A DNA stretch of 64,000 bases from Diplocarpon mali (lineage: Eukaryota > Ascomycota > Leotiomycetes > Helotiales > Drepanopezizaceae): NCBI GenBank assembly GCA_024741835.1, contig JAENRP010000133.1, positions 1 to 64,000 of the forward strand, read 5' to 3'. The translations under genes and the position numbers were made by a program. Every line of letters begins with the position of its first letter. Positions within the stretch are counted from its first letter, which is position 1. Under the pieces are notes generated by a model. It was given only the letters and a program-made list of their open reading frames with translations, was not told the origin of the DNA and ran no database searches. Positions 1 to 59,653 of the stretch are shown piece after piece.

Positions 1-1686
1 ACGGTTCATGCAGTCGTCAAAGCTGCAGTTGATGGTCGGGCAAAGGACGGAGCGCAGTCTCCCAACCGCCCACAGCACCAAGGCTCTCTGCCGAAGCCTC
101 CGAAAGGATGGCTAGACCTAGAGAAGCACCCTTTTGGCGAACGATTTAAGGAAGGAGGGCGCCAGGAGATCAGGAATTTGGAATCTCGGAGTTGCTAGAG
201 AATCGTGCAGAGGGATTACTCAAAGCCCCCGCCGATACCATTGAAATGGGTTTTTACCTATAAGGTCAATAGCTCTAGCGAGCTTCTGAAGTGCCGATCA
301 CGGCTAGTTGTGCGAGGGGATCTCCAAGACGAAGCTTCAATTTTCTCAACCTACGCAGCCACGCTCGCAGCGAGGTCTTTCAAGGTACTAATGGCGCTTG
401 CCGCGTACTTCGATATAGAAGTAAAGCAGTTCGACGTCGTCAACGCATTCGTCAACGCTCCTAGAGACCCAAGGAGTGCTCCAGTCACGTGCTTCCTACC
501 AGATGGCTTCAAGCGCCCTGGTATGGTAGTAGAACTGGACCGCGCGCTCTACGGGCTGAAAGACTCTCCGGCGCTATGGTATGGGAACTTCGCAGGAACG
601 CTCAAGGGCCTTCAACTCGAGCCACTAGGCGAGGAGCCTTGTATTTTCACGACAAAGGATCGCACAGTCTTCGTAGCGTTTTACATCGACGATATTCAAG
701 TGTTATATAAGGCCTCCAACCTAGATCGGGCGACTCGTCTGATTAAAGACCTAAAGAGGGCGTACGAGCTTACTATCATGGGAGATATCTCCTGGTTCCT
801 TGGAGTAAGGATTATTCAGGATAGGAAGGCAAAGAGGATCTCCTTAGTTCATGATACCTATATTAAGAAGATCGCTCAAAAGTTCGGAGCTGATATAGGG
901 AGAGTGCCTAGTACTCCACTGCCAAAGAAGGAGTTTGTCAAAAACTCAAGGCAAGCTTCCCTAGAAAAGGTAAAGGAGTACCAAGAGAAAATAGGCTCTA
1001 TTCTCTATACGGCGATTATAATACGCCCAGACGTTGCGTTCGCAGCCTCCCAACTGTCTTTCTTCCTGACTAATCCAAGCTCCAAGCACCTCTCAGCCGC
1101 GGACTAGACGCTTCGATACCTATACGGCACGCGCTTCTTAGGAATTGCCTATAGCTTCAAGGCCAAGGAACACCAATTGGTCGCGTCTTCAGATGCTTCT
1201 TTCGGAGATGACCGAGAGACCCGCAGATCCTCCCAGGGATATGTCTTCTTCCTATTTAAAGGACCGATTATTTAGAAAGCGAATCGCCAAGCGACTGTCA
1301 CGCTCTCCTCTACTAAAGCAGAACTCTATGGCATGGTTTCTACTGCGAAGGAGATAATGGCTATAAAACGCCTCTTCAAGGAGATTCGCATAGACTCCCT
1401 CTTTAAATAGAACATATATTGCGACAACCAACAGACGATTCGGCTAATTATCACGGAGAACGAGAAGATCAAGACGAGCCTCCGACATATCGAAATCAGT
1501 AATATATGGATCCGCCAGGAGTACCAGAAAGGAAGCTTCCAGATAATCTACCTCCCTACTAAGGAGATGCACGCAGATAGGCTTACTAAGAACCTGGACC
1601 GCTAGAAGTTTGAGAGCTTCGTTCGTTTATTAAACCTCCAGAGCTTCCAAACAATCGTTCAACAACTCGCACTCGCCAGCGAGTAG
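1..1686 (+). pseudogene. pol: Alpha-1 pol: copia reverse transcriptase and RNase H, partial, five TAG stops
   Basis: Codon frame 1 from base 1 to the TAG at 1684-1686. The stretch 205-1107 is open for 300 codons and is a copia-type RVT_2 domain: PLKWVFTYKV near 240, LKCRSRLVVRG near 285, AALYGLKDSPALWY-like LYGLKDSPALWY near 550, and the catalytic YIDD at 682-693 intact. RNase H follows (SSDASFGDD near 1190; TVTLSSTKAELYG near 1300; HADRLTKNL near 1570). Stops are at 196, 1105, 1273, 1408 and 1603; each is TAG where a Trp is expected (for example ...ADxTLRYLYGT and PIIxKANRQ). That is one RIP-type G-to-A change each. Integrase, protease and Gag are off window. Family assignment is firm; activity is not possible without readthrough of the stops. 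Confidence 0.95.
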
Positions 1687-2240
1687 TCACTCATTACCAA
1701 GAGACTCGTACTTACGAGCTCCTACTCTCTTACAGTTACGTTCATTTGTTTTCTCTTACAAAGTGCACCGCAGAAGCTTCTCCTTTTCTAAAAATACAAG
1801 AATGGGTAACGTTCCCAAGCCGCTATTACAGGGCGCGACCCTTCCTCAGATCCTCCCAGCTAGGGCTAGGAGCCGCGAAGCCACAGCCATAAGCTCCGCA
1901 CGGATCTCCTCCTAAGAGAGGCCCGGAGGCACTCCCTCGGCCAGAGGCCCGCCGGCGAATACACCAGCGACGGCGGGGGCGAAGGCAGGGGGTGCGGCAG
2001 GGGCGGCGGCGAAGGCGGGAGCGGCGACGGCAGGGGCCGGGAAGACGAAGGGAGACACAAAGGGGTCGGCGGCGGCGGCGGCAGGGACAGGAGTGGCGGC
2101 GGCGGCAAGCGGGGGAAACGGGGCGGCGGAGGACGGGCCGGCGGCGAACGCGAACGGGATGCCAGGAGCGGGGGAGGCAGCAGCACCACCACTCGCAGGA
2201 GTGGCGGGCCCTCCTAGCACCAGGGTCCGATCGCTCCCAT

Positions 2241-2286
2241 CTTTTAAAAATCAGCCTGGAACTCAACGAGACTCAACAAGACGTAC
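2241..2286 (-). other. Intron 2 of the Alpha-1 antisense gene (46 bp, phase 1)
   Basis: Donor GTACGT, branch-like GGCTGAT, acceptor AAAAG. Splicing joins exon 2 ...SFR plus one base to exon 3, giving Asp then GSDRTLVLGG. This is the frame that stays open in the three best copies. Length varies 44, 45, 45, 45, 46 bp between copies, always with multiple-of-three exons around it. The AAG acceptor is less common than CAG or TAG. Confidence 0.75.
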
Positions 2287-2585
2287 CACGGAAGCTCCGA
2301 AGCGCACCCTTCACTGCATTTAGCAGTGGCGCCACCTCCTCCTTAGAGGCGCCGCGGGCGCGGGCCGACACGACAGCCTCCCAGAAGGCGAGGAGAGGTC
2401 CGCTAGCCTACTGGCAGCCGTTGCTCAGCACCGCACAACGAACGCAACGCGCACCGAAGGTACTATTGAAGCACCGACAATCGAGATTGCCAGTGCTCCC
2501 GCGTGCGATGCAACGCACGCACGCGTCGTCGCGCTCTATCGTGGGCTCAGGCATACGGCGCGCAGCGGGGGCAGGGCTCTCAGGT

Positions 2586-2611
2586 GGCGGCGGCGGCGGC
2601 GGCGGCGGCGG
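2586..2611 (-). repeat. GGC/CCG trinucleotide run
   Basis: Eight CGG/CCG units. On the antisense gene they encode the core of its polyproline tract. Alpha-4 and Alpha-5 have different unit numbers here, so this is one source of in-frame length variation. Confidence 0.9.
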
Positions 2612-2692
2612 GGACAGCGGCGGCGGCTCGTTACCCAGCAGGCGCTGGGAGGACTGGGACAGGGTTCCAGCTCCCGCAGGAGCGCCAGCGAC

Positions 2693-2742
2693 CTAGCGCA
2701 AAGTCAGTACAACGCAGGGTACAGGGACTCCAAGGGTCTTAC
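2693..2742 (-). other. Intron 1 of the Alpha-1 antisense gene (50 bp, phase 0)
   Basis: Donor GTAAGA, branch-like ACTGACTT about 10 nt before the end, acceptor CTAG. Removing it joins codon AAA of exon 1 to GTC of exon 2 in frame. In Alpha-5 the same intron is 51 bp because of a single-base indel inside it, which would be frame-breaking in an exon. Confidence 0.82.
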
Positions 2743-2841
2743 TTTGCGAGGGCGGCCAGGGCCACAACAAGCAGGAGTTCCTTCCATATTCAAAATTATT
2801 AGTATGAAGACGATATTTTAAATAATAAAGGAGGGTTGTTT

Positions 2842-3072
2842 TTAAAAGAAGGGAAGGAGAACCTCCGCAATGGAAATACTCTATGGGAAGCCCAATGGAG
2901 CACTAGCGTGGAATCGCGAAGATTCCTAAGCGCGCTTGTTGCCTATGGCGACCCTTCTCATTCTAGAAGGAACGACCTCTAAAGGGGCAATACGTAAGAT
3001 GGAGCCTCTTTTCTTCACAACTGCCATTCTTTCTTTTATTTTATCTACATAGCTAAGCGATTCTGGGAGCAT
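2842..3072 (-). other. Small antisense ORF between the 3' LTR and the antisense gene
   Basis: From an ATG at 3070-3072, just inside the LTR boundary, it reads MLPESLSYVDKIKERMAVV and is open to TAG at 2926; with two RIP-type TAGs read through it would reach TAA at 2842. The same reading is kept in Alpha-5 and Alpha-6 with mostly conservative changes. One-base indels between copies in the following AT-rich stretch break its frame relative to the main gene, so it is not simply a longer N-terminus. It may be an upstream ORF or leader of the antisense transcript, or a separate small protein. Function unknown. Confidence 0.4.
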
Positions 3073-3080
3073 CGCCCAAC

Positions 3081-3089
3081 TAAGGGGTA
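3081..3089 (+). other. Polypurine tract of Alpha-1
   Basis: TAAGGGGTA immediately before the 3' LTR. This is the expected site for plus-strand priming. The same position has AGGGGTA or its RIP derivative in the other Alpha copies. Confidence 0.7.
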
Positions 3090-3287
3090 TGTCGTATAGA
3101 ATGGGCGGAGTCTCCACTTATTCTAGAGACCCTCCACGTGACTCCTGCTGAGTCATAGACTCTCCCTTTTCTTTCCAAAGTCTCCTTACCAGACATACAC
3201 TAGAGAACAATACAATCAATCATCTTCATCCATATCAGCGAGCCTCCTGAGCGACCCAATGAAGGCCCTCCAGCCGACCGCACCACA
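3090..3287 (+). repeat. Alpha-1 3' LTR
   Basis: Begins TGTCGTATAG and ends GCACCACA, 198 bp. Boundaries were fixed by comparison with the complete Alpha elements, where 5 bp target duplications lie exactly outside TGTCGTG and CACCACA. Confidence 0.92.
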
Positions 3288-23960: not shown

Positions 23961-24838
23961 AGATTATTCAGGATAGGAAGGCAAAGAGGATCTCCTTAGT
24001 TTATAATACCTATATTGAGAAGATCGCTTAAAAGTTCGGAGCTAATATAAGGAGAGTGCCTAATACTCTACTACTAAAGAAGGAGTTTATTAAGAACTTA
24101 AGGCAAGCTTCCTTAGAAAAGGTAAAGGAGTACTAAGAGAAAATAGGCTCTATTCTCTATATAGCGATTATAATACGCCTAGACATTGCGTTTGTAGCCT
24201 TTTAACTGTCTTTCTTCTTAATTAATCTAAGCTTTAAGTACCTCTTAATTGCAAACTGGACGCTTTAATACCTATATAGTACGCGCTTTTTAGGAATTGC
24301 CTATAGCTTTAAAGCTAAGGAATACCAACTGGTTATATCTTTAGATACTTCTTTTAAAGATGATCGAGAGACCTGCAGATCCTCTTAAGGATATATCTTC
24401 TTCTTATTTAAAGGACCGATTATTTAAAAAGCGAATCGCTAAGCGACTATCACGCTCTCCTTTACTAAAGTAGAACTCTATAGCATAGTTTCTATTATAA
24501 AGGAGATAATAGCTATAAAACGCCTCTTTAAGGAGATTCGCATAGACTCCTTCTTTAAATGGAATATATATTATAATAATTAATAGACGATTCGGCTAAT
24601 TATTATAAAGAATAAGAAGATTAAGATAAGCCTTTGATATATCGAAATCAGTAATATATAGATCTGCTAAGAGTATTAAAGAAGAAGCTTTCAAATAATC
24701 TACCTCCCTATTAAGGAGATATACGTAAATAGTCTTATTAAGAACCTAGACTATTAGAAGTTTAAAAGCTTCGTTTATTTATTAAACCTTTAAAGCTTTT
24801 AAATAATCGTTTAGTAACTTATACTTACTAGCAAGTAG
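23961..24838 (+). pseudogene. pol: Alpha-4 pol: end of RT and RNase H, RIP-degraded
   Basis: Collinear with Alpha-1 812-1686; terminal TAG at 24836-24838. Several added stops compared with Alpha-1 show stronger RIP. It lacks the YIDD region. Confidence 0.88.
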
Positions 24839-24996
24839 TTACTTATTATTAAGAGACTTATACTTATAAGCTCCTACTCTCTTATAATTATATTTATTTA
24901 TTTTCTCTTATAAAGCGTACTATAGAAGCTTCTCCTTTTTTAAAAATATAAAATAGGTAATATTCCTAAGCTGCTATTATAAGGCGCAACCCTTTC

Positions 24997-25925
24997 TTAA
25001 ATCCTCTTAGCTAAGGCTAAGAGCTGCAAAGCTATAGCTATAAGCTCTATATAGATCTCCTTTTAAAAGAGGCTTAGGGGCACTCCCTCGGCCAGAGGCC
25101 TGCTGGCAAATATACTAGCGATAGCAAGGGCGAAGGCAAAGGGTGCGGCAGCGGCAAAGGCAGGAGCGGCGATAATAGAGGCAGGAGAGACAAACGGAGA
25201 TATAAACGGGTCGGCGTTAGTAGCAGCAGCAAGGATAGGAGCGACAGCAGCTATAGCAAAGGGGCTAAGAGCAAACGGGAATAGTATGCCAGAAGTAAGG
25301 GAGGCAGCAGTACTACTACTCGCAGGAGTAGCAGGCCCTCTTAATACTAGGGTCCGATCGCTCCTATCTTTTAAAATTAGCTTAAAACTTAATAAGACTT
25401 AATAAGATATATTATAAAAGCTTTAAAGCGTACCCTTTATTATATTAAGCAATAGTATTACCTCCTTCTTAAAGGCACTATAGGCATAGGCCGATACAAT
25501 AGCCTTTTAAGAGGCAAGGAGAGGTCCGCTAGCCTATTAGCAGCTATTGCTTAATATTATATAATAAATGTAATGTATACTAAAGGTACTATTAAAGTAT
25601 TAACAATTGAGATTGCTAATACTCTTGCGTATAATATAGTATATATATGTGTTATTATATTCTATTATAGGCTTTGGTATATAACGCGCAGTAAGGGTAG
25701 GGCTCTTAGGCGGCGGCGGCAGTAGTAGCAGCAGCGGCGGCGGCAAGGGCGATAGCAGCGGCGGTACATTTCCTAGCAGGCGCTAAGAGGACTAAGACAG
25801 GGTTGCAGCTCCTAAGGGAGTGCTAGCAACTTAGCGCAAAGTTAGTATAACGCAAGATATAAGGACTTTAAGGGTCTTACTTTATAAGGGCGGCTAAGAT
25901 TATAATAAGTAGGAGTTCCTTTTAT
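24997..25925 (-). pseudogene. Alpha-4 copy of the antisense gene
   Basis: Same three-exon layout as 1846-2787. Exon 1 25881-25925 has ATG mutated to ATA; intron 1 is 25831-25880 (donor GTAAGA kept, acceptor TAG mutated to TAA); intron 2 is 25368-25412, 45 bp, donor mutated to ATATAT; final TAA at 24997-24999. Exon total is 834 nt, divisible by three although 12 nt shorter than Alpha-1. Cysteine codons are partly lost by RIP. No longer expressible as such. Confidence 0.75.
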
Positions 25926-26228
25926 ATTTAAAAATTATTAGTATAAAGATAATATTTTAAATAATAAAGGAAGGTTGTTTTTAAAAGAAGGGAAGGAGAA
26001 CTTTTATAATAGAAATACTTTAAAGAAAGCCTAATAAAGTATTAGTATTAAATTATAAAGATTCTTAAAAGCGCTTATTACTTATAGTAACCCTTCTTAT
26101 TTTAAAAGGAACGACCTTTAGAAAGGCGGCATGTAAGATAGAGCCTCTTTTCTTTACAACTGCTATTCTTTCTTTTATTTTATTTATATAGCTAAGCGAT
26201 TCTAAGAGCATCGCCTAACTAAGAGGTA

Positions 26229-26425
26229 TATTATATAAAATAGGCGAAGTCTCTACTTATTCTAAAGACCCTTTATATAAGTCTGCTAAGTTATAGACTC
26301 TCCCTTTTCTTTCCGAAGTCTCCTTACCATATATATACTAGATAATAATATAATTAATCATCTTCCCCTACTTCTGCGAGCCTCCTGAGCGACCTAATGA
26401 AGGCCTTCCAGCCGACCGCACCATA
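26229..26425 (+). repeat. Alpha-4 3' LTR
   Basis: 197 bp, TATTATATAAAAT...GCACCATA, RIPed. Confidence 0.92.
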
Positions 26426-26574
26426 TTACTTCATACGTTTAAGTTAGTATTTAAAGTAAGCTAGAAATATAATTAAGTACTCCTTTAAATTAAGAAAGAA
26501 TTCTTTAGTTTAATAACCTTACTATTTATAGTAAAAGTACTACTACTAATTAATATAAGTTCTATACTAGTAAT
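26426..26574. repeat. Left arm of an inverted repeat (partner 60330-60477)
   Basis: This 149 bp sequence between Alpha-4 and Beta-2 is the reverse complement of 60330-60477 with mainly transition differences (for example CTAGTATAGAAC and GGTTATTAAACT in the partner). It is truncated on the left by Alpha-4 and on the right by Beta-2. It may be an LTR or a terminal inverted repeat of an older element; identity unknown. Confidence 0.75.
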
Positions 26575-31256: not shown

Positions 31257-31453
31257 TGTGGTGCGGTCGGCTGGAGGGCCTTTATTGGGTCGCTTAAGAG
31301 GCTCGCAGAAGTAGGGGAAGATAATTGATTGTATTATTCTCTAGTATATATATAGTAAAGAGACTTCGGAAAGAAAAGGGAAAGTCTATGACTTAGCAGA
31401 GTCACGTAAAGGGTCTTTAGAATAAGTGGAGACTCTGCCTATTCTATATAATA
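31257..31453 (-). repeat. Alpha-5 3' LTR
   Basis: 197 bp, plus strand TGTGGTGCGGTCGGC...CTATATAATA; the outer end is unmutated. Confidence 0.95.
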
Positions 31454-31756
31454 TACCCCTTAGTTAGGCGATGCTTTTAAAATCGCTTAGCTATATAGAT
31501 AAAATAAAGGAAAGAATAGTAGTTATAAAGAAAAGAGGCTCTATCTTATATGCTGCCCCTTTAGAGGTTGTTCCTTTTAAAATAAGAAGGGTTGCTATAG
31601 GCAATAAGCGCGCTTAAGAATCTTTGCGATTCTACGCTAATACTCTATTAGGCTTCCTATAGAGTATTTCTATTGCAGAGGTTCTCCTTCCCTTCTTTTA
31701 AAAACAACCCTCCTTTATTATTTAAAATATCGTCTTTATATTAATAATTTTTAAAT

Positions 31757-32688
31757 ATAGAAGGAACTCTTGCTTATCGTAGCCTTAGCCGCCCCTGCAA
31801 AGTAAGACCCTTAGAGTCCCTTATACCCTGCGTCGTACTGACTTTGCGCTAGGTCGCTGGCGCTCCCTCGGGAGCAGGAACCCTGTCCCAGTCCTCCCAG
31901 CGCCTACTAGGTAATAAGCCGCCGCCGCCGCCCCTACCGCTGCCGCCGCCACTTGAGAGCCCCGCCCCTGCTGCGCGCCGTATGCCTAAGCCTATAATAG
32001 AGCGCAATAACGCGTGTATGCATTATATTGTATATAAGAGCACTGGCAATCTCGATTATTAGTACTTTAATAGCACCTTTAGTATGCGTTGCGTTTATTA
32101 TATAGTATTAAGTAATAGCTGCTAGTAGGCCAGCGGACCTCTCCTCGCCTCTTAAAAGGCTATTATATCGGCCTATACCCGCGGTGCCTTTAAAGAGGAG
32201 GTAGCACTACTACTTAATATAATAAAGGGTGCGCTTTAAAGCTTTTATAGTACGTTTATTAAGTCTTATTAAGTTCTAAGCTGATTTTAAAAGATAGGAG
32301 CGATCGGACCCTAGTGCTAAAAGGGCCTGCCACTCTTGCGAGTAGTAGTATTGCTGCCTCTCCTGCTCTTAGTATACTATTTGCATTCGCTGCTAGCCTA
32401 TCCTCCGCCGCCCTATTCCCTTTGCTTACTACTACCGCTCCTATCCCTGCTGCTGCTATTAACGCCGACCCGTTTATATCTCCGTTTGTCTCCCTTGCCC
32501 TTATTATCGCCGCTCCCGCCTTTGCCGCCGCCTTTGCTACACCTCCCGCCTTTGCCCCTGCTATCGCTAGTATATTCGCCGGCGGGTCTTTAGCCAAAGG
32601 AGTGCCTTCGGGCCTCTCTTAAGAGGAGATCTATACAAAGCTTATGACTATAGCTTTATAGCTCTTAGCCTTAGTTAAGAGGATCTGA
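31757..32688 (+). pseudogene. Alpha-5 copy of the antisense gene, both introns recognisable
   Basis: Exon 1 31757-31801 (ATG to ATA), intron 1 31802-31852 (51 bp, GTAAGA...CTGAC...CTAG intact), exon 2 31853-32249, intron 2 32250-32293 (44 bp, GTACGT...AAAAG intact), exon 3 32294-32688 ending in TGA. Exon total is 837 nt (279 codons). Exon 3 is open apart from one TAA at 32620 where a Gln is expected (LSxEEI). Several cysteines of exon 2 are now Tyr (TGT to TAT). The open minus-strand frame 32259-32597 is the shadow of exon 3. Confidence 0.78.
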
Positions 32689-32847
32689 GAAAGGATTGCG
32701 CCTTATAATAGCGGCTTAAGAATATTACCTATCCTTATATTTTTAAAAAAGGAGAAGCTTTTATAATGCGCTTTATAAGAGAAAATAAATAAATATAACT
32801 ATAAGAGAATAGGAGCTTATAAGTACGAGTCTCTTAATAATAAGTAA

Positions 32848-35800
32848 CTACTTGCTAATAAGTGCGAGTTGCTAAACGATTGTTTAAAAGCTTTAAAGGT
32901 TTAATAAACGAATAAAGCTTTTAAACTTCTAGCGGTCTAGGTTCTTAATAAGCCTATTTGTATATATTTCTTTAATAAGGAGGTAGATTATCTAAAAGCT
33001 TCCTCTTTAGTACTCTTAGCGGATCTATATATTGCTAATTTTAATATATTAAAGGCTTATTTTAATCTTCTTATTCTTTATAATAATTAGCCGAATCGTT
33101 TATTAATTATTATAATATATATTCTATTTAAAGAGGGAATCTATGCGAATCTCTTTAAAGAGGCGTTTTATAGCTATTATCTCCTTTATAGTAGAAACTA
33201 TACTATAAAGTTCTACTTTAGTAAAGGAGAGCGTAATAGTCGCTTGGCGATTCGCTTTTTAAATAATCGGTCCTTTAAATAGGAAGAAGACGTATCCTTA
33301 AAAGGATCTATAGGTCTTTTGGTCATTTTTAAAAGAAGTATTTAAAGATGCGACTAATTAGTATTCCTTAGCCTTAAAGCTATAGGCAATTCTTAAGAAG
33401 TGCGTATTATATAAGTATTAAAGCGTTTAGTCTGCGGCTAAGAGGTACTTAGAGCTTAGATTAATTAGAAAGAAAAATAGTTAGGAGGCTGTAAACGCAA
33501 CGTTTAAGCGTATTATAATCGCTATATAGAAAATAGAGCCTATTTTCTCTTAATACTCTTTTACCTTTTCTAAAGAAGCTTACCTTAAGTTCTTAACAAA
33601 TTCCTTCTTTAGTAGTAGAGTATTAAGCACTCTCCTTATATTAGCTTTAAACTTTTAAGCGATCTTCTTAATATAGGTATTATAAATTAAGGAGATCCTC
33701 TTTACCTTTTTATCTTAAATAATCCTTATTTTAAAGAACTAGGAGATATCTCTTATAATAGTAAGCTTATATACCCTCTTTAGGTCTTTAATTAAACGAG
33801 TCGCTTAATCTAGGTTAAAGGCCTTATATAATACTTAAATATCGTTAATATAAAATGCTATAAAGATTATATGATCCTTTATTATAAAAATATAAGGCTC
33901 CTTGCCTAATAGCTTAAGTTAAAGGCCCTTAAGCGTTCTTGCGAAGTTCCTATACTATAGTGCTAAAGAGTCTTTTAGCCTATAGAGCGCGCGGTCCAGT
34001 TTTATTATTATACTAAGGCGCTTAAAGCCATCTAATAGGAAGCATATGACTAAAGCACTCCTTAGGTCTTTAGGAGCGTTGATAAATGCGTTAATAATAT
34101 CAAACTACTTTACTTCTATATCAAAGTATATAGTAAGTGCTATTAGTACCTTAAAAGACCTTACTATAAGCGTAGCTATATAGGTTGAGAAAATTGAAGC
34201 TTTATCTTAGAGATCCTTTTATATAATTAGCTATAATCGGCACTTTAGAAGCTCGCTAGAGCTATTGACCTTATAGGTAAAAACCTATTTTAATAGTATT
34301 AGCAAAGGCTTTAAGTAATCCCTTTATACGATTCTCTAGCAACTCTAAGATTTTAAATTCCTAATCTCCTAGTGCCCTCCTTCTTTAAATCGTTTGCTAA
34401 AAGGGTACTTCTCTAAGTCTAGCCATCCTTTTGAAGGCTTTGGCAAAGAGCCTCAGTACTATAGGCGGTTAAAAGACTACGTTCCGTCCTTTACCTAACT
34501 ATCAATTATAGCTTTAATAATTGTATAAACTATTAAATAGTCCTTCCTATCCTCTCTTATCTATTCGTTTACTTAAAAGGTTAATATAAACTCTTGCGTA
34601 TATAAGGAGTAGGGTAAATTAATATTGCTTTAAAAGAGTATATACTTTAAAGCGGTAGTATACACTTTTAAAGTCTCTTATTACTTAATGCTTAAGTATC
34701 TTATCCTCTTTTGCTTAGGAAGAGGGAGTTCCTTCTTACGCTTTTCTTTATAAGTCTCTTCCTCTATTTTTATTATTACTAGAGGTTCCTTTCAGAGTCT
34801 AGGTAGCTCTATCTCCTAAGCCTATAGTCTTTAAGCTAGTATTATAATTTAAGGTATTATATTATTAAAGCCTGCTCCTTTTATTAGGTCGCTTCTTATA
34901 AGACTATTAAAGCTCCTCTTAGATCTTGATAGTAGTACCTTTAGCCTTTTACTAAAGTTTACTAAGGCTTGCCTTTATAATTAAAGACTTTATCTTAAAG
35001 CCCTTAAGCCATTTCTATTCTTATATAGAATAGCAGCTAAAGATCTGCTAATCGCCTTATAGAACTTATCTTTAAAGACTCCTTTAGAGTTATCTACGAT
35101 TCCTTTTTTAGTAGGGCCTCTATAGGGAATCATCACCCTTAAGCTCTAGTTGCTATTTACCTTTTTAAAAATTAATAAAGTAGCTTTTAGTTCGCTTGCT
35201 TCTACCCTTAAGTTTCTAAGCAGGTCTCTTAGAGAATTTGGATTTAAGTTAAGGCCTTTTATATTATTAGTTAAAGGCTATAAAGCAGCGTCGGTCTATA
35301 ATATAGGCTCTTCTTATATAGCAGCTTCTTTTACAGCGATTGCGTTCGGCCCTGCGATAAGCTCCGATTCCTTGAAAATGCCTTCGAACTTAGCGTCTTA
35401 AGCTCCCTCTCCCTCTCTAATCAATTGGAGGGTTATCTTAAGTTCCTAGCGCAATATAGGGTTTGCGCGCTTAGCTTTTAGACTATAAAATAGAGACTTG
35501 TCGAATTCGATATTATAAGTTATTATTACTTATTAGAGTATAGGAACTTAGATTTTATAAATATTAAAGGTGATATATCTAATTAAGTAACTTAAGTACC
35601 CTTATAGTTCAATTTTAAAGGTTAAGCGGTCCTTTTCTACCTACTTTTCCTTAATTAAAGGGTATGCGTAAGCGCTATATATATAAATGTAACTCTAATT
35701 GGGCTTTAAGCTTGCTATTATCTATTTAATAAGCAGCAGTTTATAAAATCGAAAATACTATTTAAACTAACTATAAAGAGCTTTACTTAATAAGATTATC

Positions 35801-38406: not shown

Positions 38407-38599
38407 ATTAAATAGAGTCTAGTGAAAAGGTTAGGTATATAAATGAAGTTTGCAAATAAGGTTCGATCGAAAAATAGAGATTTGTTAATTGAAAATAAAG
38501 GTCCTTTGAGTTATTATAAATACTCGAAAAGTCGGTCAAGAGCTTAAAGGGCCCTTTAGCCGGTTGTATACAAAGAGAAAGCATATTAAAGTGCTTATA

Positions 38600-38610
38600 G
38601 GGCTTATAAC
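38600..38610 (-). other. Alpha-5 primer-binding site
   Basis: GTTATAAGCCC read on the minus strand directly after the 5' LTR; fits the initiator tRNA-Met anticodon arm after undoing one RIP change. Confidence 0.7.
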
Positions 38611-41470: not shown

Positions 41471-41481
41471 GTTATAAGCCC
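41471..41481 (+). other. Alpha-6 primer-binding site
   Basis: GTTATAAGCCC immediately after the LTR; half initiator tRNA-Met type. The leader continues to 41674 without coding sequence. Confidence 0.7.
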
Positions 41482-44600: not shown

Positions 44601-47233
44601 TAGAAGCTAAGTGCGCAAACCCTATATTGCGCTAAGAACTTAAGACGACTCTCTAATTGATTAAAGAGGGAGAGGGAGCTTAGGACGCTAAGTTCGAAGG
44701 CATTTTTAAGGAATTAGAGCTTATTATAGGACTAAACGCAATCGCTATAGAAGAAGCCGTTATATAAGAAGAGCTTATATTATAAACTAACGCTACTCTA
44801 TAGCCTTTAACTAATAATATAAAAGGCCTTAATTTAAATCTAAATTCTCTAAGAGACCTGCTTAAAAACTTAAGGGTAAAAGCAAGCGAATTAGAAGCCA
44901 CTTCGCTAGTCTTTAAGAAGGCAAATAGCGACTAGAGCTTAAGGGTGATAATTCCTTATAAAGGCCCTATTAAAGAAGGAACTGTAGACAACTTTAAGGG
45001 AGTCTCTAGAGATAAGTTCTATAGGGCGATCGGCAGATCTTTAGCTGCTATTCTATATAAGAATAGAGATAGCTTAAAGGCTTTAAGATAGAGTCTTTAG
45101 TTATAAAGGTAGGCCTTAGTAAACTCTAGTAAAAGGCTAGAAGTACTATTGCTAAGATCTAGGAGGAGCTCTAATAGTCTTATAAGAAGCGACCTAATAA
45201 AAGGAGTAGGCCCTAATAATATAATACCTTAAGTTATAATACTAGCTTAAAGACTATAGGCTTAGGAGATAGAGCTACTTAAACTCTTAAAGGAACCTTT
45301 AATAATAATAAAAATAGAAAAGGAAACTTATAGAGAAAAGCGCAAGGAGGAACTCCCTCTTCCTAGGCAAAAGAGGATAAGATACTTAAGCGTTAAGTAA
45401 TAGGAGACTTTAAAAGTATACGCTACTGCTTTAAAGCATATGCTCTCTTAAAGCAATATTGATTTACCTTACTCCTTATATATATAGGAGTTTATATTAA
45501 CCTTTTAAGCGAATGAATAGATAAGGGAGGATAAGAAGGACTATTTAATAGTTTATATAGTTATTAAAGCTATAGTTGATAATTAGGCAAAGGATAAAGC
45601 GTAGTCTCTTAACCGCCTATAGTACTAAGGCTCTTTGCTAAAGCCTTCGAAAGGATGGCTAGACTTAGAAAAGCACCCTTTTAGCAAACGATTTAAGGAA
45701 AGAGGGTATTAAGAGATTAGGAATTTGGAATCTCAAAGTTGCTAGAGAATCGTATAAAGGGATTATTCAAAACCCTTACTAATACTATTAAAATAGGTTT
45801 TTACCTATAAGGTTAATAGCTTTAGCAAGCTTCTAAAGTGCTGATTATAGCTAGTTATGCAAAGGGATCTCTAAGATAAAGCTTTAATTTTCTTAACCTA
45901 TATAGCTACGCTTATAGCAAGGTCTTTTAAAGTACTAATAGCGCTTGCTATATACTTTGATATAGAAGTAAAGTAGTTCGATATTATTAATACATTTATT
46001 AATACTCTTAAAGACTTAAGGAGTGCTTTAATCATATGCTTCCTATTAGATGGCTTTAAGCGCCTTAGTATAGTAGTAGAACTGGACCGCGCGCTCTATA
46101 GGCTAAAAGACTCTTTAGCGCTATAGTATAGGAACTTTATAGGAACGCTTAAGGGCCTTCAACTTGAGCTATTAAGCAAGGAGCCTTGTATTTTTATAAT
46201 AAAGGATCATATAGTCTTTATGGCATTTTATATCGACGATATTTAAGTGTTATATAAGGCTTTTAACCTAGATCGGGCGACTCGTCTGATTGAAGACCTA
46301 AAGAGGGCGTACGAGCTTACTATTATAGGAGATATCTCCTAGTTCTTTAAAGTAAGGATTATTTAAGATAGGAAGGCAAAGAGGATCTCTTTAGTTTATA
46401 ATACCTATATTGAGAAGATCGCTTAAAAGTTTAGAGCTAATATAAGGAGAGTGCCTAATACTCTACTATTAAAGAAGGAGTTTATTAAGAACTTAAGGCA
46501 AGCTTCTTTAAAAAAGGTAAAGGAGTATTAAAAGAAAATAGGCTTTATTCTTTATATAGCGATTATAATACGCTTAGATATTACATTCGCAGCCTTTTAA
46601 CTATCTTTCTTCTTAACTAATCCAAGCTTTAAGTACCTTTTAACCGCGGACTAGACGCTTTGATACCTATATAGTACGCGCTTCTTAGGAATTGCCTATA
46701 GCTTTAAGGCTAAGGAATACTAATTGGTTGCGTCTTTAGATGCTTCTTTTAGAAATGATTAAGAGACCCGCAGATCCTCTTAAGAATACGTCTTCTTCTT
46801 ATTTAAAGGACCGATTATTTGAAAAGCGAATCGCCAAGCGACTGTCACGCTCTCTTCTATTGAAGCAAAACTCTATAGTATAGTTTCTATTGCAAAAGAG
46901 ATAATGGCTATAAAATGCCTCTTTAAGGAGATTCGCATAGACTCCCTCTTTAAATAGAATATATATTGCAATAACTAATAGATAATTCGGCTAATTATTA
47001 TAAAGAATAAGAAGATTAAGATAAGCCTTTAATATATTGAAATTAGCAATATATAGATCTGCTAAGAGTACTAAAGAGGAAGCTTTTAGATAATCTACCT
47101 CCTTACTAAGGAGATATACGCAGATAGGCTTACTAAGAACCTAGACTACTAGAAGTTTAAGAGCTTTATTCGTTTATTAAACCTCTAAAGCTTTTAAATA
47201 ATCGTTTAGCAACTTGCACTCGCTAGTAAGTAG
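41675..47233 (+). pseudogene. gag-pol: Alpha-6 gag-pol polyprotein, single frame, RIP-degraded
   Basis: Best full-length reading of the Alpha polyprotein: 1,853 codons with the stop, from ATA (formerly ATG; reads SDSLSISKPCFN) to TAG at 47231. Gag to about 42,900 with KCLCRGFKNHYxKPxDY at 42743 (Cx1Cx5Hx6C once C-to-Y is undone). Protease region ATYIINSKDLLIASTFKP near 43145. Integrase zinc region SHLSAEALxALVKCTK...CLICAIAFAKQ near 43,655-43,765; core RPFFKISxDLFNFLNN near 43,810. RT from about 45,760 with YIDD intact at 46,229-46,240. RNase H near 46,700-47,200. Stops are TAG/TAA at Trp/Gln. Frames at 43147-43383 and 44680-44901 minus are shadows. Confidence 0.93.
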
Positions 47234-47392
47234 TTACTTATTACTAAGAGACTTATACTTATAAGCTCCTACTTTCTTATAGTTATATTTATTTGTTTTC
47301 TCTTATAAAGTATACTATAGAAGCTTCTCCTTTTTTAAAAATATAAGAATAGGTAACGTTCCTAAGCCGCTATTATAAGGCGCGACCCTCTC

Positions 47393-48360
47393 TTAGATTC
47401 TCCTAGCTAAGGCTAAGAGCTGAGACGCCATAGCTAAGAGCTCTATATAGATCTCCTCTTAAGAGAGGCCTACTAGTACTCCCTTGGCTAAAGGCCCGCT
47501 AGCAAATACACTAGCGAAGGCGGAAGGTGCGATAGGAGCGATAGGAGCAAGGGCGCTAGGGGCGGCAGTAAGGACAGGCGCAGCGATAGCAAAGGCTAGG
47601 GAGATAAACAGGGAGACTATAGCAGCGGCTGCAATAGCAGAAGCGAAGGAGACGGGAGCGGCGGCGGCGGCGATAAGGGCAAATAGGTCTAAGCTAGAGG
47701 GGCTAAGAGCAAATAGGAATAGTACGCTAAGAGCGAAGGAGGCAGTAGCACTACTACTTATAGGAGTGGCAGGCCCTTCTAGCACTAGGGTTCGATCGCT
47801 TCCATCTTTTAAAATCAGCTTAAAACTTAATAAGACTTAATAAGATATACTATAGAAGCTCTAAAGCGCACCCTTTACTGCATTTAGCAGTAGCGCCACC
47901 TCTTCCTTAAAAGCGCCGTAGGCGCAGGCTAATACAATAGCCTTTTAAGAGGCGAGGAGAGGTCTGCTAGCCTACTAGCAGCCGTTGCTTAGCACTATAT
48001 AATAAACGCAATACGTATTAAAGGTACTATTAAAGTACTAACAATCGAGATTGCTAGTACTCCTATATGCGATATAATGTACGCACGCGTTATTGCGCTT
48101 TATCATAGGCTTAAGTATATAGCACGCAGCAAGGGCAAGGCTCTTAAGTAGCAGCGGCAGCGGCAAGGGCAGCGGCAGCAGTAGGGACAGCAGCAGCAGC
48201 TCGTTACTTAGTAGGCACTAAGAGGACTGGGATAAGGTTCCTACTCTTATAAGAGTGCTAGCAACCTAGCGCAAAGTTAGTATAACGCAAGGTATAGGGA
48301 CTTTAAGGGTCTTACTTTGCAAGGACAGCTAAGGCCATAATAAACAAGAGTTCCTTCTAT
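47393..48360 (-). pseudogene. Alpha-6 copy of the antisense gene
   Basis: Exon 1 48316-48360 (ATG to ATA); intron 1 48266-48315 (GTAAGA, branch CTAAC, acceptor CTAG all intact); exon 2 47851-48265; intron 2 47806-47850 (45 bp, donor GTATAT); exon 3 47393-47805 ending TAA. Exon total is 873 nt (291 codons). Exon 3 is open for 108 codons, then TAA at 47459 where Gln is expected, then EEIYIELLAMASQLLALARR. The plus-strand frame 47484-47840 is its shadow. Confidence 0.78.
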
Positions 48361-48664
48361 ATTTAAAAATTATTAGTATAAAGATAATATTTTTAAATAA
48401 TAAAGAAGGGTTATTTTTAAAAGAAGGGAAGGAGAACCTTTGCGATAGAAATACTCTATAGGAAGCCTAATAGAGCACTAGCGTAGAATTATAAAGATTC
48501 TTAAGCGCGCTTATTGCCTATAGTAACCCTTTTTATTTTAAAAGGAACGACCTTTAGAAGGGTAGCATATAAGATAGAGCCTCTTTTCCTTACAACTGCC
48601 ATTCTTTCTTTTATTTTATCTATATAGCTAAGCGATTTTAAAAGCATCGCCTAATTAAAGGGTA

Positions 48665-48862
48665 TATTATGCAGAATAGGCGGAGTCTCTACTTATTCTA
48701 AAGACCCTTTATATGACTCCTACTAAGTCATAGACTCTCCCTTTTCTTTCCGAAGTCTCCTTACCATATATATACTAGATAATAATACAATCAATCATCT
48801 TCTCCTACTTCTGCGAGCCTCCTAAGCGACCCAATAAAGGCCCTCCAGCCGACCGCACCATA
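48665..48862 (+). repeat. Alpha-6 3' LTR
   Basis: 198 bp, TATTATGCAGAAT...GCACCATA; TSD CTTCT follows. Confidence 0.95.
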
Positions 48863-48867
48863 CTTCT

Positions 48868-53600: not shown

Positions 53601-56173
53601 TAATTAAAGAGGGAAAGGGAGCTTAGGACGCTAAGTTCAAAGGCATTTTCGAGAAATCAGAGCTTATCGCAAGGCTAAACGCAATTACCGCAGAAGAAGC
53701 CGCTATATAAGAAGAGCCTATATTACAGACCGACGCTGCTCTATAGCCTTTAACTAATAATATAGAAGGCCTTAACTTAAATCCAAATCCGAGAGACCCG
53801 CTTAAAAACTTAAGGGTAAAAGCAAGGGAATTAAAAGTTACTTCGCCAATCTCTAAGAAGGCAAATGGCGACTAAAGCTTAAGGGTAATAATTCCCTATA
53901 GAGGCCCTACTAAAGAAGGAACTATAGAAGACTCTAAAGGAGTCTCTAAAGACGAGTTTTATAAGGCGATCGGCAGATCTCTAGCTACTATTCTATATAG
54001 GAATAGAGATGGCTTAAGAGCTCTAAGATAGAGTCTTTAATTATAAAGGCAGGCCCTAATAAACTTTAGTAAAAGGCTAAAGGCACTACTACTGAGATCT
54101 AAAAGGAACTTTAATAGTCTTATAAGAAGTGACCTAGTAAGAGAAGCAGGCCTTAATAATATAATACCTTAAGTTATAATACTAGCTTAAAGACTATAAG
54201 CTTAAGAGATAGAGCTATTTAGACTTTTAAAGGAACCTTTAGTAATAATAAAAATAAAGGAGAAGACCTATAGAGAAAAGCGCAAAGAGGAACTCCCTCT
54301 TCTTAGGCAAAAGAGGATAAGACGCTTAAGTATTAAGTAATAGGAGACTTTAAAATTATATACTACCGCTTTAAAGTATATACTCTCTTAAAGCAATATT
54401 AATTTACCTTACTCCTTATATACTTAAGAGTTTATATTAACCTTTTAAGTGAACGAATAAATAAAAGAGGATAGGAAGGACTATTTAATAGTTTATATAA
54501 TTATTAAAGCTGCAATTAATAGTTAGGCAAAGGATAAAGCGTAGTCTCCTAACCGCCTATAGCACTAAGGCTCTTTACTAAAGCCTTTGAAAGGATAGCT
54601 AGACCTAAAGAAGTACCCTTTTAGTAAACGATTTAAAGAAGGAGGGCGCTAGGAGATTAGGAATCTAAAATCTCAAAGTTGCTAAAGAATCGTATAAAAG
54701 GATTACTTAAAGCCCTTGCCAATACTATTAAAATAGGTATTTACCTATAAGGTTAATAGCTCTAGCGAGCTTCTAAAGTGCCGATTATAGCTAGTTATAC
54801 AAAGGGATCTCTAAGATAAAGCTTCAATTTTCTCAACCTACGCAGCCATACTTATAGCAAGGTCTTTTAAAGTTCTAATAGCGCTTACCGCATACTTTAA
54901 TATAGAAGTAAAGCAGTTCGACGTTATTAATGCGTTTGTCAATGCTCTTAAAGACCTAAGGAGTACTCTAATCATATGCTTCCTATTAAATGGCTTTAAG
55001 CGCCCTAGTATAATAGTAGAACTGGACCGCGCGCTCTATAGGCTAAAAGACTCTCTAGTGCTATAGTATAAGAACTTCGCAAGAACGCTTAAAGGCCTTT
55101 AACTTAAGCTATTAAGCGAAAAGCCTTATATTTTTATAATAAAGGATTATATAGTCTTTATAGCATTTTATATTAATAATATTCAAGTATTATATAAGGC
55201 CTTTAACTTAAATCAAGCGACTCGTCTAATTAAAGACCTAAAGAGGGCATATAAGCTTACTATTATAAGAGATATCTCTTAGTTCCTTAAAGTAAGGATT
55301 ATTCGAAATAGGAAGGTAAAGAGGATCTCTTTAATTTATAATACTTATATTAAAAAGATCGCTTAAAAGTTTGGAACTAATATAGGAAGAGTGCTTAATA
55401 CTCTACTATTAAAGAAGGAGTTTATTAAGAACTTAGGGTAAGCTTCCTTAGAAAAGGTAAAGGAGTACTAAGAGAAAATAGGCTCTATTCTTTATATAGC
55501 AATTATAATATACTTAAATATTGCATTTACAGCCTTTTAACTATCTTTCTTTTTAATTAATCTAAGCTTTAAGTATCTCTTAGCCGCAGACTAAACGCTT
55601 TAATACCTATATAATACGCACTTCTTAAGAATTGCCTATAGCTTTAAGGCTAAGGAATACCAATTAGTCGCATCTTTAAATGCTTCTTTTAAAGATGATT
55701 AAAAGACCCGCAGATCCTCTTAAGGATATGTCTTCTTCCTATTTAAAGGACCAATTATTTAAAAAGCGAATTGCCAAGCGACTATTACGCTCTCTTCTAC
55801 TAAAGTAGAACTCTATAATATAGTTTCTACTATAAAGAAGATAATAGCTATAAAACGCCTCTTTAAAGAGATTCGCATAAACTCCCTCTTTAAATAGAAT
55901 ATATATTATAATAACTAATAGACGATTTAGCTAATTATTATAAAGAATGAAAAGATTAAAATAAGCCTTTAATATATTAAAATTAGCAATATATAAATCC
56001 GCTAAAAGTACTAAAGAGGAAGCTTTTAAATAATCTACCTCTTTACTAAAGAAATGCATATAAATAGGCTTATTAAAAACCTAAACCGCTAGAAGTTTAA
56101 GAGCTTTATTCATTTATTAAACCTCTAGAGCTTTTAAACAATCATTTAGCAATTTGCACTTACTAATAAGTAG
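50621..56173 (+). pseudogene. gag-pol: Alpha-7 gag-pol polyprotein, single frame, RIP-degraded
   Basis: 5,553 nt in one frame, ATA (formerly ATG) at 50621 to TAG at 56171, collinear with Alpha-6 but two codons shorter. Zinc knuckle KCPYKGFKNHY near 51,690. The RT catalytic block reads FYINNIQVLY near 55,165-55,195. Heavy TAG/TAA load. The minus-strand frame 52090-52302 is a shadow equivalent to 43147-43383 opposite Alpha-6. Confidence 0.92.
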
Positions 56174-56330
56174 TCACTTATTACTAAAAGACTTATACTT
56201 ATAAGCTCCTACTCTATTATAATTATATTTATTTATTTTCTCTTATAAAGCGTATTGCAAAAGCTCTCCTTTTTTAAAAATATAGAATAGGTAATATTCC
56301 TAAGCCGCTATTATAAGGCGCAACCCTCTC

Positions 56331-57307
56331 TTAGATTCTCCTAGCTAAGGCTAAGAGCTAGGACGCTATAGCTAAGAGCTTTATATAGATCTCCTTTTAA
56401 AAGAGGCCTACTAGTACTCCCTTAGCCAAAGGCCTGCCGGCGAATATATTAGTAATAGCAGGGGCAAAGGCAGGAGGTATAGTAATAAGGGCGGCAAGGG
56501 CAAGGGCGGCAGGAGCGAGGACGGGCGCGGCGATAGCAGGGGCTAGGGAGACGAATAAAGAGACTATAGCAGCAGCTGCAATAGCAAAAGCAAAAGGGAT
56601 AGGAGCAGTAGCAATAATAGTAAGGGCGAATAGGTCTAAGTTAAAAGGCCTAAGAGCGAATAGGAATAGTATACTAAGAGTAGAAGAGGTAGTAATACTA
56701 CTACTTATAAGAGTAGCAGGCCCTTTTAGTACTAGGGTCTAATCGCTCCTATCTTTTAAAATCAGCTTAAAACTTAATAAGATTTGATAAAATATATTAT
56801 AAAAGCTTTAAAGCGCACCCTTTATTATATTAAGCAATAACGCTACCTCCTCCTTAAAGGCACTGCAGGCATAGGCTAATACAATAGCCTCTTAAGAGGT
56901 AAGGAAAGGTCCGCTAGCCTATTAGCAGCTGTTGCTTAGCACTATATAATAAACGCAACGCGCACCAAAGGTATTATTAAAGTACTAATAATCGAGATTG
57001 CTAGTACTCTTATATACGATATAATATACGCACGCGTTATTACGCTCTATTATAGGCTTAGGCATATAGCGTATAGCAAGGGCAGGGCTCTTAGGCAGTA
57101 GCGGCAGTAGCGGTAGCAGCAAGGGCAGCAGGGATAGTAGCAGCGGCTTATTGCTTAGCAAGCGCTAGGAGGACTGCGCTAAGGTTGCAGCTCTTATAAG
57201 AGCGCTAGCAACCTAGCGCAAAGTTAGTATAACGCAAGATATAGGGACTCTAAGGGTCTTACTTTACAAGGGTAGCTAAGGCTATAATAAGTAGGAGTTC
57301 CTTTTAT
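56331..57307 (-). pseudogene. Alpha-7 copy of the antisense gene
   Basis: Exon 1 57263-57307; intron 1 57213-57262 (50 bp, GTAAGA...CTAG intact); intron 2 56753-56797 (45 bp, donor mutated to ATATAT, AAAAG acceptor kept); TAA at 56331-56333. Exon total is 882 nt (294 codons), the longest of the five copies but still a multiple of three. Cysteine codons and the start are RIPed. Confidence 0.75.
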
Positions 57308-57611
57308 ATTTGAAAATTATTAATATAAAGACGATATTTTTAAATAATAAAAGAGGGTTATTTTTAAAAAAAGGGAAAGAGAACCTCCGCAATAGAAATA
57401 CTCTATAGGAAGCCTAATAAAGCACTAGTATAGAATCGCGAAGATTCCTAAGCGCGCTTATTACCTATAGCAACCCTTCTTATTTTAAAAGGAACGACCT
57501 TTAAAGGGGTAGTATATAAGATAGAGCCTCTTTTCTTTATAATTGCCATTCTTTCTTTTATTTTATTTATATAGCTAAGCGATTCTAAGAGCATCGCCTA
57601 ATTAGGGGGTA

Positions 57612-57808
57612 TATCGTATAAAATAGGCAAAGTCTCCACTTATTCTAAAGACCCTCTATATAACTCTACTTAGTTATAAACTCTCCCTTTTCTTTCCGAA
57701 GTCTCCTTACCATATATATACTAGATAATAATATAATCAATCATCTTTATCTATATCAGCGAGCCTCTTAAGCGACCTAATAAAGGCCCTCCAGCCGACT
57801 GCACCATA
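57612..57808 (+). repeat. Alpha-7 3' LTR
   Basis: 197 bp, TATCGTATAAAAT...GCACCATA; TSD CTAGG follows. Confidence 0.95.
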
Positions 57809-57813
57809 CTAGG

Positions 57814-59653
57814 CCTATATACTATACCTTAGCCTTCTTTAAAAGAGGCTCTAAGATAATATTAATATTAAACCTATCTATAAGTACTATATTCCTAAGC
57901 TCTAAGTCTCTTTTATTAGTAAGAACCCCTTTTATCAGACGTATACTCCTTCCCCTTATTAATAGACTTAAGCTCCCTGCCTTTATATAGTCCTAAGGAT
58001 ATGCGATTTTTAATAATCTAAGAACTAAAAGCTCCTTTCGATTAATAAGGTGCGTTATAGCGCAGTTATCAAGTAGGGTTATATTTAAAAGAGCGTAGGG
58101 AGCTCTAAGGGTAGAGTATATTCCTGGGGTAAAGTCTTTAAAGAGAGTTAGATCTAAAAGGGCGGCTATAATCTTAGATTTGCTGCTCTTTAAAGCTTTA
58201 GCAAATGTTTTTTCCTTAAATTGATCTATAAGAGCGTATTTAATATAAGAGAGCTTAGCTTAAAGCTCTCTCTATTTTAAGGAAGTAAGGTTTTTATACA
58301 TTCTTTTAACCTTATTATAGCTAGGAAGGTTTCGAAGTGTATCTTCCTTAGCGCTAGTTAAAGCGTATTTCAGCCTATTACACTCCTTTAGGTTCTAAAA
58401 GTGATTTTTAACCTAAGGGCAAGGGCACTTTTTAACGCTCTCTTTAATAGTCTTCTTTGCCTTGCCTTTACTTAATGCTCTTAGATTAGTATAATCGCCT
58501 ACTCCTTTAAGCGAGGCGTATACTCTAAGGGTTGCCTTTAATAAAGAGCTTGCGAGGCTTCGCTCTATTAAGCTTAAGAACTAATTAATATAATAGACTA
58601 TATCTTTTCTATGCTTTAAGCTTAGCTTATTATCTTTAATAAGCTTTGCCTAAGTCTACTAGGACTAAGTAGGAGCCTAGTAGTAAATCGACTATAGAAA
58701 CTTTATAATTGTAAGGGAGCTTTGAACCTTTAGGATTCTATAAGTTCGAGCTTCCTAGTAGATCTCCTTAAAGCTAGTAAGCTAGGTCTTCGGGTCCACT
58801 TTACTACTCCTTATTTCAAAGAGTATATTATTATAATCTTCTTAAATTGACTCTATTATACTAACCTTAGAAGGGGCTAGTTCCTTGCGCAAGTGCTTTA
58901 TGATCTATTAAATTAACAGTTTCCCCGCTTCCTTATAGTTATATTACATTACTTAAAGTAACGTAGGGTATACTATCTTAGTAATCCAATAGTATAACTG
59001 AGTATAAGAGCTCCTATTCCTTTTCTACATTTCTACTATAAGATTATATTACGTTACTGCTATTTTATACTCTAGCTCTACGTCTTTAGCTATTATCTTC
59101 GCAGGTAGTAGTAGAGCTGGTGTTTATTAATCAGTAGCTTCCTACTATTAGTATAACTTATAGTAGCTTTATAATATTCTTTAGTCCTATCTTTCTACAA
59201 TTTTTTCAAGCTGCGGCAGTTCTATTTCTAGATCCAGTAGATATAGAGCTTTATTCTTATAAAGTAGAGCTTGATTTCCTATCTCTATAGTATATAATTT
59301 AAAGTTATTAACCTATCTTAACTTCTTTATATACTTCTAAAGCTGCAGAAATTCGGCCTGAAACTCTAGCTTAGCATACCAAATGCGCTATGACTTCCTA
59401 TCCTAGAGTATAACTCTACTAAAGCTAAGCTCTTAAGCTTCTTTTTACTAGTATTCACTTATATTAACTGGGATAGTAAGGAGTATAGGTTCTATTAGTT
59501 AGCTGGGAGCGTTATAACGTCGAATCTGATTGTATAACGCGTATAGGCGAGGGAGAATGGATGAAAAATAGTAGTAAAACCTCTTTAAGAAGTCTCTAAA
59601 TATAGTAGATTTTTGATCGTTTGCTCCTAAGAGTCGCGAATAGTACTGATAAC
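57814..59653 (-). pseudogene. gag: Gamma gag and protease region, RIP-degraded
   Basis: Minus strand, next to the 5' LTR. A zinc-knuckle remnant KKCPCPxVKNHFxNLKEC lies at about 58381-58435, with the same unusual spacing as Alpha (Cx1Cx5Hx6C). The first part toward 59653 is leader; the start codon could not be fixed. Bases next to the LTR read GTTATCAGTACT on the minus strand, a primer-binding site different from that of Alpha and Beta. Confidence 0.75.

What the first reader, a model, noticed from the sequence alone, without database searches (positions are those of the whole stretch)
1846..2787. A copia retrotransposon family carries an antisense gene with two spliceosomal introns
Opposite to gag-pol, between RNase H and the 3' LTR, a reading ATG - GTAAGA...CTGAC...CTAG - exon - GTACGT...CTGAT...AAAAG - exon - TGA gives one 281-residue protein with just two RIP-type TAGs. 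Introns inside a retrotransposon should be lost at reverse transcription unless they are antisense to the element RNA, so the orientation explains their survival. I know of antisense ORFs in some plant LTR elements, but not of an intron-bearing antisense cargo gene in fungal copia elements. The protein (GRPRK, polyproline, seven-Cys cluster, C-terminal helix) is not one I recognise. It may be a captured host gene or an element regulator.
Basis: partly seen in the sequence, partly recalled or inferred. Interest (0 to 1): 0.92.

Follow-up and report, generated by a model that had tools for sequence, protein, structure and literature searches.

The report
Spliced antisense gene in fungal retrotransposons
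A high-copy jumping element of a fungus carries, on its reverse strand, a small protein gene with two introns; reverse-strand passenger genes are known in other elements, but one with introns in this class looks new and may help control the element.

Summary
Window 1846-2787 (-) lies between the RNase H end of a copia pol gene and a ~198-bp 3' LTR, and reads as three exons and two introns, 281 codons with two internal TAGs. Among 42 aligned copies from the same genome, exon lengths differ only by multiples of three while intron lengths vary by single bases. Of 253 in-frame stops at 11 codon sites, 252 are derivable by C>T/G>A (RIP) from another copy. Intron 1 has a stop in all three antisense frames in 42 of 42 copies. 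40 of 40 top-scoring RNase H copies keep the gene or a part of it; at least 150 exon-2 copies exist. The only protein relatives found are Diplocarpon (Marssonina) coronariae hypothetical proteins. I read it as a resident, spliced antisense accessory gene ('aORF-3R'), perhaps encoding a nuclear DNA-binding protein. The kind is known (Botrytis Boty brtn, maize Grande gene23; HTLV HBZ is spliced). A two-intron antisense gene in a fungal copia family is, as far as I could search, a new variant. Transcription, splicing and function are untested; a host-captured origin has no support here but is not excluded.

The parts
2743..2787 (-). exon 1 of the antisense gene, ATG to GRPRK
   Evidence: 45 nt in 42 of 42 copies
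2693..2742 (-). intron 1, GTAAGA...CTGAC...CTAG
   Evidence: stop in all three antisense frames in 42 of 42 copies
2287..2692 (-). exon 2: Pro-rich stretch, seven-Cys cluster, predicted helices
   Evidence: helices from a low-confidence model
2241..2286 (-). intron 2, GTACGT...CTGAT...AAAAG
   Evidence: length 44-46 nt among copies; same junction in 4 of 16 public gene models
1846..2240 (-). exon 3: Ala/Pro-rich stretch, conserved C-terminal segment, TGA
2788..3089 (-). stretch between the ATG and the 3' LTR, low in transversions; candidate promoter region (inferred, not tested)
   Evidence: 9 of 300 columns with transversions in 41 copies
199..1107 (+). copia reverse transcriptase part of pol, RVT_2
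   Evidence: PF07727 E 1.7e-31
1210..1686 (+). RNase H end of pol (by position and frame; no family search of this piece)
3090..3287 (+). 3' LTR
   Evidence: boundaries by eye
24652..26426 (+). second copy of the pol end - gene - LTR region in the window
31257..33033 (-). copy of the region, inside a full-length element about 31257-38807 (-)
47048..48860 (+). copy of the region, inside a full-length element about 41273-48868
55988..57821 (+). copy of the region, inside a full-length element about 50218-57821

Best explanation
This is a resident accessory gene of a high-copy Ty1/copia family, lying antisense between pol and the 3' LTR and expressed as its own spliced mRNA. SHOWN by sequence comparison: the three-exon reading is the ancestral open frame of the family, it is kept family-wide, and both introns stay in the copies. 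INFERRED: transcription starts in the conserved 300 bp between the ATG and the 3' LTR, or in the LTR; the spliceosome removes the introns; the protein (AT-hook-like GRPRK, seven-Cys cluster, helices) acts in the nucleus on element DNA or chromatin, most likely tuning sense transcription or helping integration. The introns persist because the packaged genomic RNA carries only their reverse complement, which is not spliced. RIP has damaged all 42 copies examined.
For: Exact exon-intron structure. Exon length differences are multiples of three in 42 of 42 copies while introns vary by single bases. 252 of 253 stops are derivable by C>T/G>A, with CpA and CpG the mutated contexts. The gene frame has fewest stops in exons 2 and 3; intron 1 is closed in every antisense frame. 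Exon 2 transversion columns at codon positions 1, 2, 3: 3 of 136, 4 of 135, 15 of 135. 40 of 40 top RNase H copies carry the gene or a part (34 by exon-2 match; 6 examined singly). Four of 16 public D. coronariae models use the same exon 2-exon 3 junction.
Against: No RNA evidence was available. None of the 42 copies is free of internal stops in the joined frame. Exon 3 shows weak constraint (transversion columns 23 of 131, 5 of 132, 19 of 132 at positions 1, 2, 3). Triplet-repeat slippage gives gaps of three without coding. One sense frame over exon 2 is also nearly RIP-explicable (389 stops, 1 unexplained). 12 of 16 public models enter or start exon 3 differently, and none contains the exon 1-exon 2 junction. 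No Pfam, PDB or DUF3716 relationship supports a nuclear role; the fold model is poor (mean pLDDT 49.7).
Confidence: 0.72

Rival explanations
1. A host gene with its introns was captured in antisense orientation, by insertion or template switching, and spread with the element; the protein keeps a host-like role. This is a statement on origin and does not exclude the accessory-gene reading.
For: Introns of ordinary fungal size and signals; the host has Cys-cluster genes of a loosely similar look (DUF3716).
Against: No homologue outside the element was found: 16 protein hits, all of them fitting pieces of the element gene, and the 30 best exon-2 loci are all in element context. hhalign against five of the six host DUF3716 sequences gives probability 0.3%. 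The lists were capped, so absence is not proven.
Confidence: 0.2
2. The antisense transcript works as RNA (pairing with genomic RNA, small RNAs, silencing) and the protein is secondary or lost.
For: Antisense non-coding transcripts of retroelements and a dsRNA role are discussed in PMC7264820; exon 3 is weakly constrained; all 42 copies have internal stops.
Against: Frame conservation and RIP-only stops point to a protein while the family was active; transversions in exon 2 sit mainly at third positions.
Confidence: 0.12
3. Artefact: the GC-rich, triplet-repeat stretch is open by chance in several frames, and introns were fitted to it.
For: A 267-aa sense frame is open too; exon gaps are mostly in triplet repeats.
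Against: Stop pattern in 42 copies by frame and region, the multiple-of-three exon lengths beside single-base intron changes, and the independent public models that share the second junction in 4 of 16 cases.
Confidence: 0.07
4. A sense-strand gene (env-like position) occupies the stretch.
For: Open 267-aa sense frame in the window copy; one sense frame over exon 2 has only 1 unexplained stop of 389.
Against: That frame runs through intron 2, whose length varies by single bases, and the longest sense frame is shorter in the 13 other copies printed of 41; the sense frames have more stops than the gene frame in exons 2 and 3.
Confidence: 0.03

Closest known systems
Boty brtn (Botrytis cinerea; Zhao et al. 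2011, Virology; paper not held, known here only from citing papers)
   Same: Fungal (also Helotiales, recalled) LTR element with an additional antisense gene, listed by the review PMC7264820 among antisense ORFs between pol and 3' LTR
   Different: Boty is a gypsy element (BcGypsy1 in PMC8365987, passages; chromodomain-bearing in PMC4227169, passages). I could not compare sequences or learn whether brtn has introns.
Plant antisense additional ORFs (aORF-3R): maize Grande gene23, rice RIRE2, Silene Retand, bean PvRetro13
   Same: [quoted passage not shown] Grande gene23 has its own promoter and a nuclear product (PMC7264820, parts 1 and 2 of 3 read, that is the main text; the rest of the references not read)
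   Different: Plant elements; the text I read mentions no introns in these genes; no sequence comparison made
HTLV-1 HBZ and HTLV-2 APH-2
   Same: Antisense transcript from the 3' end of the element, spliced; HBZ and APH-2 act on sense or host transcription (PMC3185765, passages)
   Different: Retrovirus; HBZ is a bZIP protein with its start codon in the LTR; here the ATG lies about 300 bp inside the LTR edge, and no relationship of the proteins was tested directly

Membership tests
aORF-3R (antisense additional ORF between pol and 3' LTR) | Antisense to gag-pol, between pol and 3' LTR | tested here: met
   pol to about 1686, gene 1846-2787 (-), LTR from 3090
aORF-3R (antisense additional ORF between pol and 3' LTR) | Present in most copies of the family | tested here: met
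   40 of 40 top-scoring RNase H copies (of 362 candidates) have the gene or a part; at least 150 exon-2 copies
aORF-3R (antisense additional ORF between pol and 3' LTR) | Antisense transcription | not testable with these tools
   no RNA data available
Ty1/copia LTR retrotransposon | copia-type reverse transcriptase (RVT_2) | tested here: met
   PF07727 E 1.7e-31 at window 199-1107
Ty1/copia LTR retrotransposon | integrase before reverse transcriptase in pol | not tested
   the window element is cut at the contig start; gag and integrase of other copies were not examined
Boty brtn family | sequence similarity to brtn | not testable with these tools
   paper not held; the three protein searches returned no Botrytis protein
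HBZ-like spliced antisense regulator | spliced antisense transcript | tested here: inconclusive
   introns supported by comparison, RNA not seen
HBZ-like spliced antisense regulator | regulates sense transcription | not testable with these tools
   needs an experiment
DUF3716 Cys-cluster proteins | profile match to PF12511 | tested here: not met
   no Pfam hit; hhalign against five of six host DUF3716 sequences probability 0.3%
AT-hook proteins | basic GRP core | tested here: inconclusive
   GPGRPRK read by eye (motif recalled); in the 17 copies printed departures look RIP-type by eye; no Pfam match

The most novel reading that the evidence does not exclude
The first intron-bearing, protein-coding antisense gene in a Ty1/copia family: an HBZ-like nuclear self-regulator whose Pro/Ala-rich segments diversify between subfamilies (transversions in 70 of 846 exon columns in 42 copies against 5 of 469 RNase H columns in 41 of them), for example as a subfamily-specific control of copy number.
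Probability: 0.2. Interest if true: 0.75.

Novelty: new variant of a known kind. Interest (0 to 1): 0.52.

Why it matters
The function of antisense genes in LTR elements is described as unknown in the review read here (PMC7264820). A spliced one gives a strand-specific signature that reverse transcription cannot leave behind by itself: spliced antisense reads would prove transcription independent of the genomic RNA. If confirmed, retrovirus-like spliced antisense accessory genes also exist in fungal copia elements. It also shows annotators that such loci turn into misleading 'hypothetical proteins' in fungal genomes.

Tried and rejected
Tried without result: Pfam on the read-through protein and on public models (no credible family); PDB sequence search (best E 0.26, CD44 and a CDK5 activator, chance level); Rfam on 1-4300 (none); intron-less copies by RIP-degenerate junction patterns (none); DUF3716 as host source (no relationship); AlphaFold2 on exon 2 (helices at 91-96, 98-112 and 117-134, Cys part unresolved, so no fold search was made); species assignment by seeking public D. 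coronariae copies in the genome (best identities 89, 86 and 82% for P0006, P0003 and P0011 among the best 150 scored candidates each; one search used too strict a threshold and says nothing). A captured host gene, an RNA-only role, chance and a sense ORF were weighed and are listed as rivals.

Literature: ten searches. None listed a title or abstract on an intron-bearing antisense gene in a fungal copia element. The library lacks most subscription papers, including Zhao 2011, and the supplementary figure of PMC8365987 that draws further additional ORFs of Botrytis elements was not seen, so an earlier report cannot be excluded.

Full report
1. What is there. The window is bases 1-64000 of contig C133 of a held genome of 49.37 Mb in 676 contigs. 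Its first 3.3 kb are the 3' part of a copia element: RT (PF07727, E 1.7e-31), the end of pol near 1686, the antisense gene at 1846-2787, and a 3' LTR at 3090-3287. Three full-length relatives in the window have ~0.2-kb LTRs and 5-bp target duplications (read by eye).

2. Is it more than chance? I aligned 44 copies of the region: the window element, four more in the window, and 39 others of the 40 matches scored (306 candidates). Two truncated rows (L039, L040) were dropped, leaving 42. Exon 1 is 45 nt in all 42. Exons 2 and 3 vary (397-418 and 371-422 nt) but always by multiples of three, whereas intron 1 is 50, 51 or 53 nt and intron 2 is 44, 45 or 46 nt. Distinct gaps: 20 of 20 in exons are multiples of three against 1 of 14 in introns and flanks. 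This is partly confounded, because exon gaps fall largely in triplet repeats.

3. The strongest test uses RIP. Mutations are C>T or G>A, mainly at CpA (52-65% of sites in three comparisons) and CpG (32-37%), against 7-14% at CpC and CpT. In the joined frame the 42 copies hold 253 internal stops at 11 codon sites; 252 of them, at 10 sites, can be derived by C>T/G>A from a codon seen in another copy. In exon 2 the gene frame has 211 stops with 1 unexplained. The two other antisense frames have 306 and 482 stops with 108 and 72 unexplained; the three sense frames have 438, 271 and 389 with 65, 24 and 1 unexplained. In exon 3 the gene frame has 42 stops against 65 to 525 in the others; there the test of unexplained stops does not discriminate, since all frames have 0 to 6. 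Intron 1 has a stop in all three antisense frames in 42 of 42 copies, so the frame can only be read if it is removed. Intron 2 is not closed in the gene's own continuing frame in every copy; its support is its length variation, its signals and the public models.

4. Against my reading: no copy among the 42 is free of internal stops. One sense frame over exon 2 is almost fully RIP-explicable. A 267-aa sense frame is open in the window copy, though it passes through intron 2 and the longest sense frame is shorter in the 13 other copies printed, of 41. Exon 3 shows little constraint.

5. Selection. RIP makes only transitions, so I counted columns with transversions. Exon 2: 3 of 136, 4 of 135 and 15 of 135 at codon positions 1, 2 and 3. 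Exon 3: 23 of 131, 5 of 132 and 19 of 132. Exon 1: 0, 1 and 0 of 15 each. Introns: 1 of 96. RNase H, in 41 of the 42 copies: 5 of 469; upstream stretch, in 41: 9 of 300. Exon 2 therefore looks constrained as protein. Exon 3 and the first third of exon 2 are much more variable than the rest of the 3' half, in blocks shared by sets of copies. Misalignment in repeats may add to this.

6. Family-wide presence. Of 40 top-scoring RNase H copies (362 candidates), 34 have an exon-2 match 0-1500 bases downstream in antisense, checked against 46 of the 150 rows that I picked by contig. Of the other six, examined singly, one has the whole gene, two are cut by a contig end after part of exon 3, one breaks off within exon 3, one has an internal deletion, and one keeps exon 1 with exons 2 and 3 deleted. 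Of the 30 best exon-2 loci, 27 have a pol match (one, L066, short and inverted) and 29 the LTR. At least 150 exon-2 copies were scored from 322 candidates.

7. Relatives. Three searches of 5.8 billion proteins found only D. coronariae (Marssonina coronariae) proteins: 4, 3 and 16; the first and last scored only the ~8000 candidates sharing most words. Four of the 16 join exon 2 to exon 3 at the predicted junction, e.g. SFR|DGSDRT; seven reach exon 3 from another upstream sequence, four start just before it and one starts inside it. None contains the exon 1-exon 2 junction. They look like automatic gene models on mutated copies (inference). The public copies P0006, P0003 and P0011 have at best 89, 86 and 82% identity in this genome, so the host is not shown to be the same isolate or species. 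D. coronariae DC1_JKI is reported as 20.74% LTR/Copia (PMC11527701, passages).

8. Protein. GPGRPRK near the start (AT-hook-like, recalled), a Pro-rich stretch, seven cysteines (C-x2-C-x10-C-x-C-x8-C-x2-C-x6-C), predicted helices (low confidence), an Ala/Pro-rich stretch and a conserved C-terminal segment. No Pfam, PDB or DUF3716 relationship.

9. Known context. Antisense additional ORFs between pol and the 3' LTR are an established, functionally unexplained kind: the review PMC7264820 (main text read) lists Grande, RIRE2, Retand, PvRetro13 and the fungal Boty, and calls for a look at antisense and spliced transcripts. HTLV antisense genes are spliced (PMC3185765, passages). The finding is therefore a new variant: copia rather than the gypsy-type Boty, fungal, two introns, no detectable relative outside D. 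coronariae. Whether brtn is spliced I could not check.

10. Mechanism. Shown by comparison: the spliced frame is ancestral and family-wide. Inferred: independent antisense transcription, splicing, and a nuclear accessory role (regulation of sense transcription or help in integration). I put the coding, spliced accessory gene at about 0.85-0.9 and the regulatory or DNA-binding role at about 0.4; the statement as a whole gets 0.72, weighted to its shown part.

Noticed in passing
window 1846-2240 and about 2600-2680, and the same stretch in 41 other copies: The antisense exons are the most variable part of the 3' half examined (70 of 846 columns with transversions against 5 of 469 in RNase H), in mosaic blocks shared between copies, suggesting recombination or diversification between subfamilies.
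   Followed up: partly
L071-L076 (G000 contigs C37, C48, C8 twice, C6, C99): Six host loci match the fungal Cys-cluster family DUF3716 above its cut-off, with no stops in the matched frame; five of them compared by profile showed no relationship to the element protein.
   Followed up: partly
42 element copies of G000: RIP-type mutation affects CpG (32-37%) as well as CpA (52-65%) in these copies.
   Followed up: no
public proteins P0001-P0004 and P0006-P0017: Sixteen public D. coronariae proteins are pieces of this transposon gene; one (P0016) bears the name of a PTS trehalose transporter subunit, which does not fit.
   Followed up: partly
L080, L082, L052: Copies with deletions within the GC-rich exons 2 and 3 while the pol side and the LTR-side stretch remain.
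   Followed up: no
window 14164-14754 (+): The only stop-free frame of 130 aa or more in window 3300-64000 (196 aa); it looks to me like a copia protease-region piece (recalled, untested).
   Followed up: no
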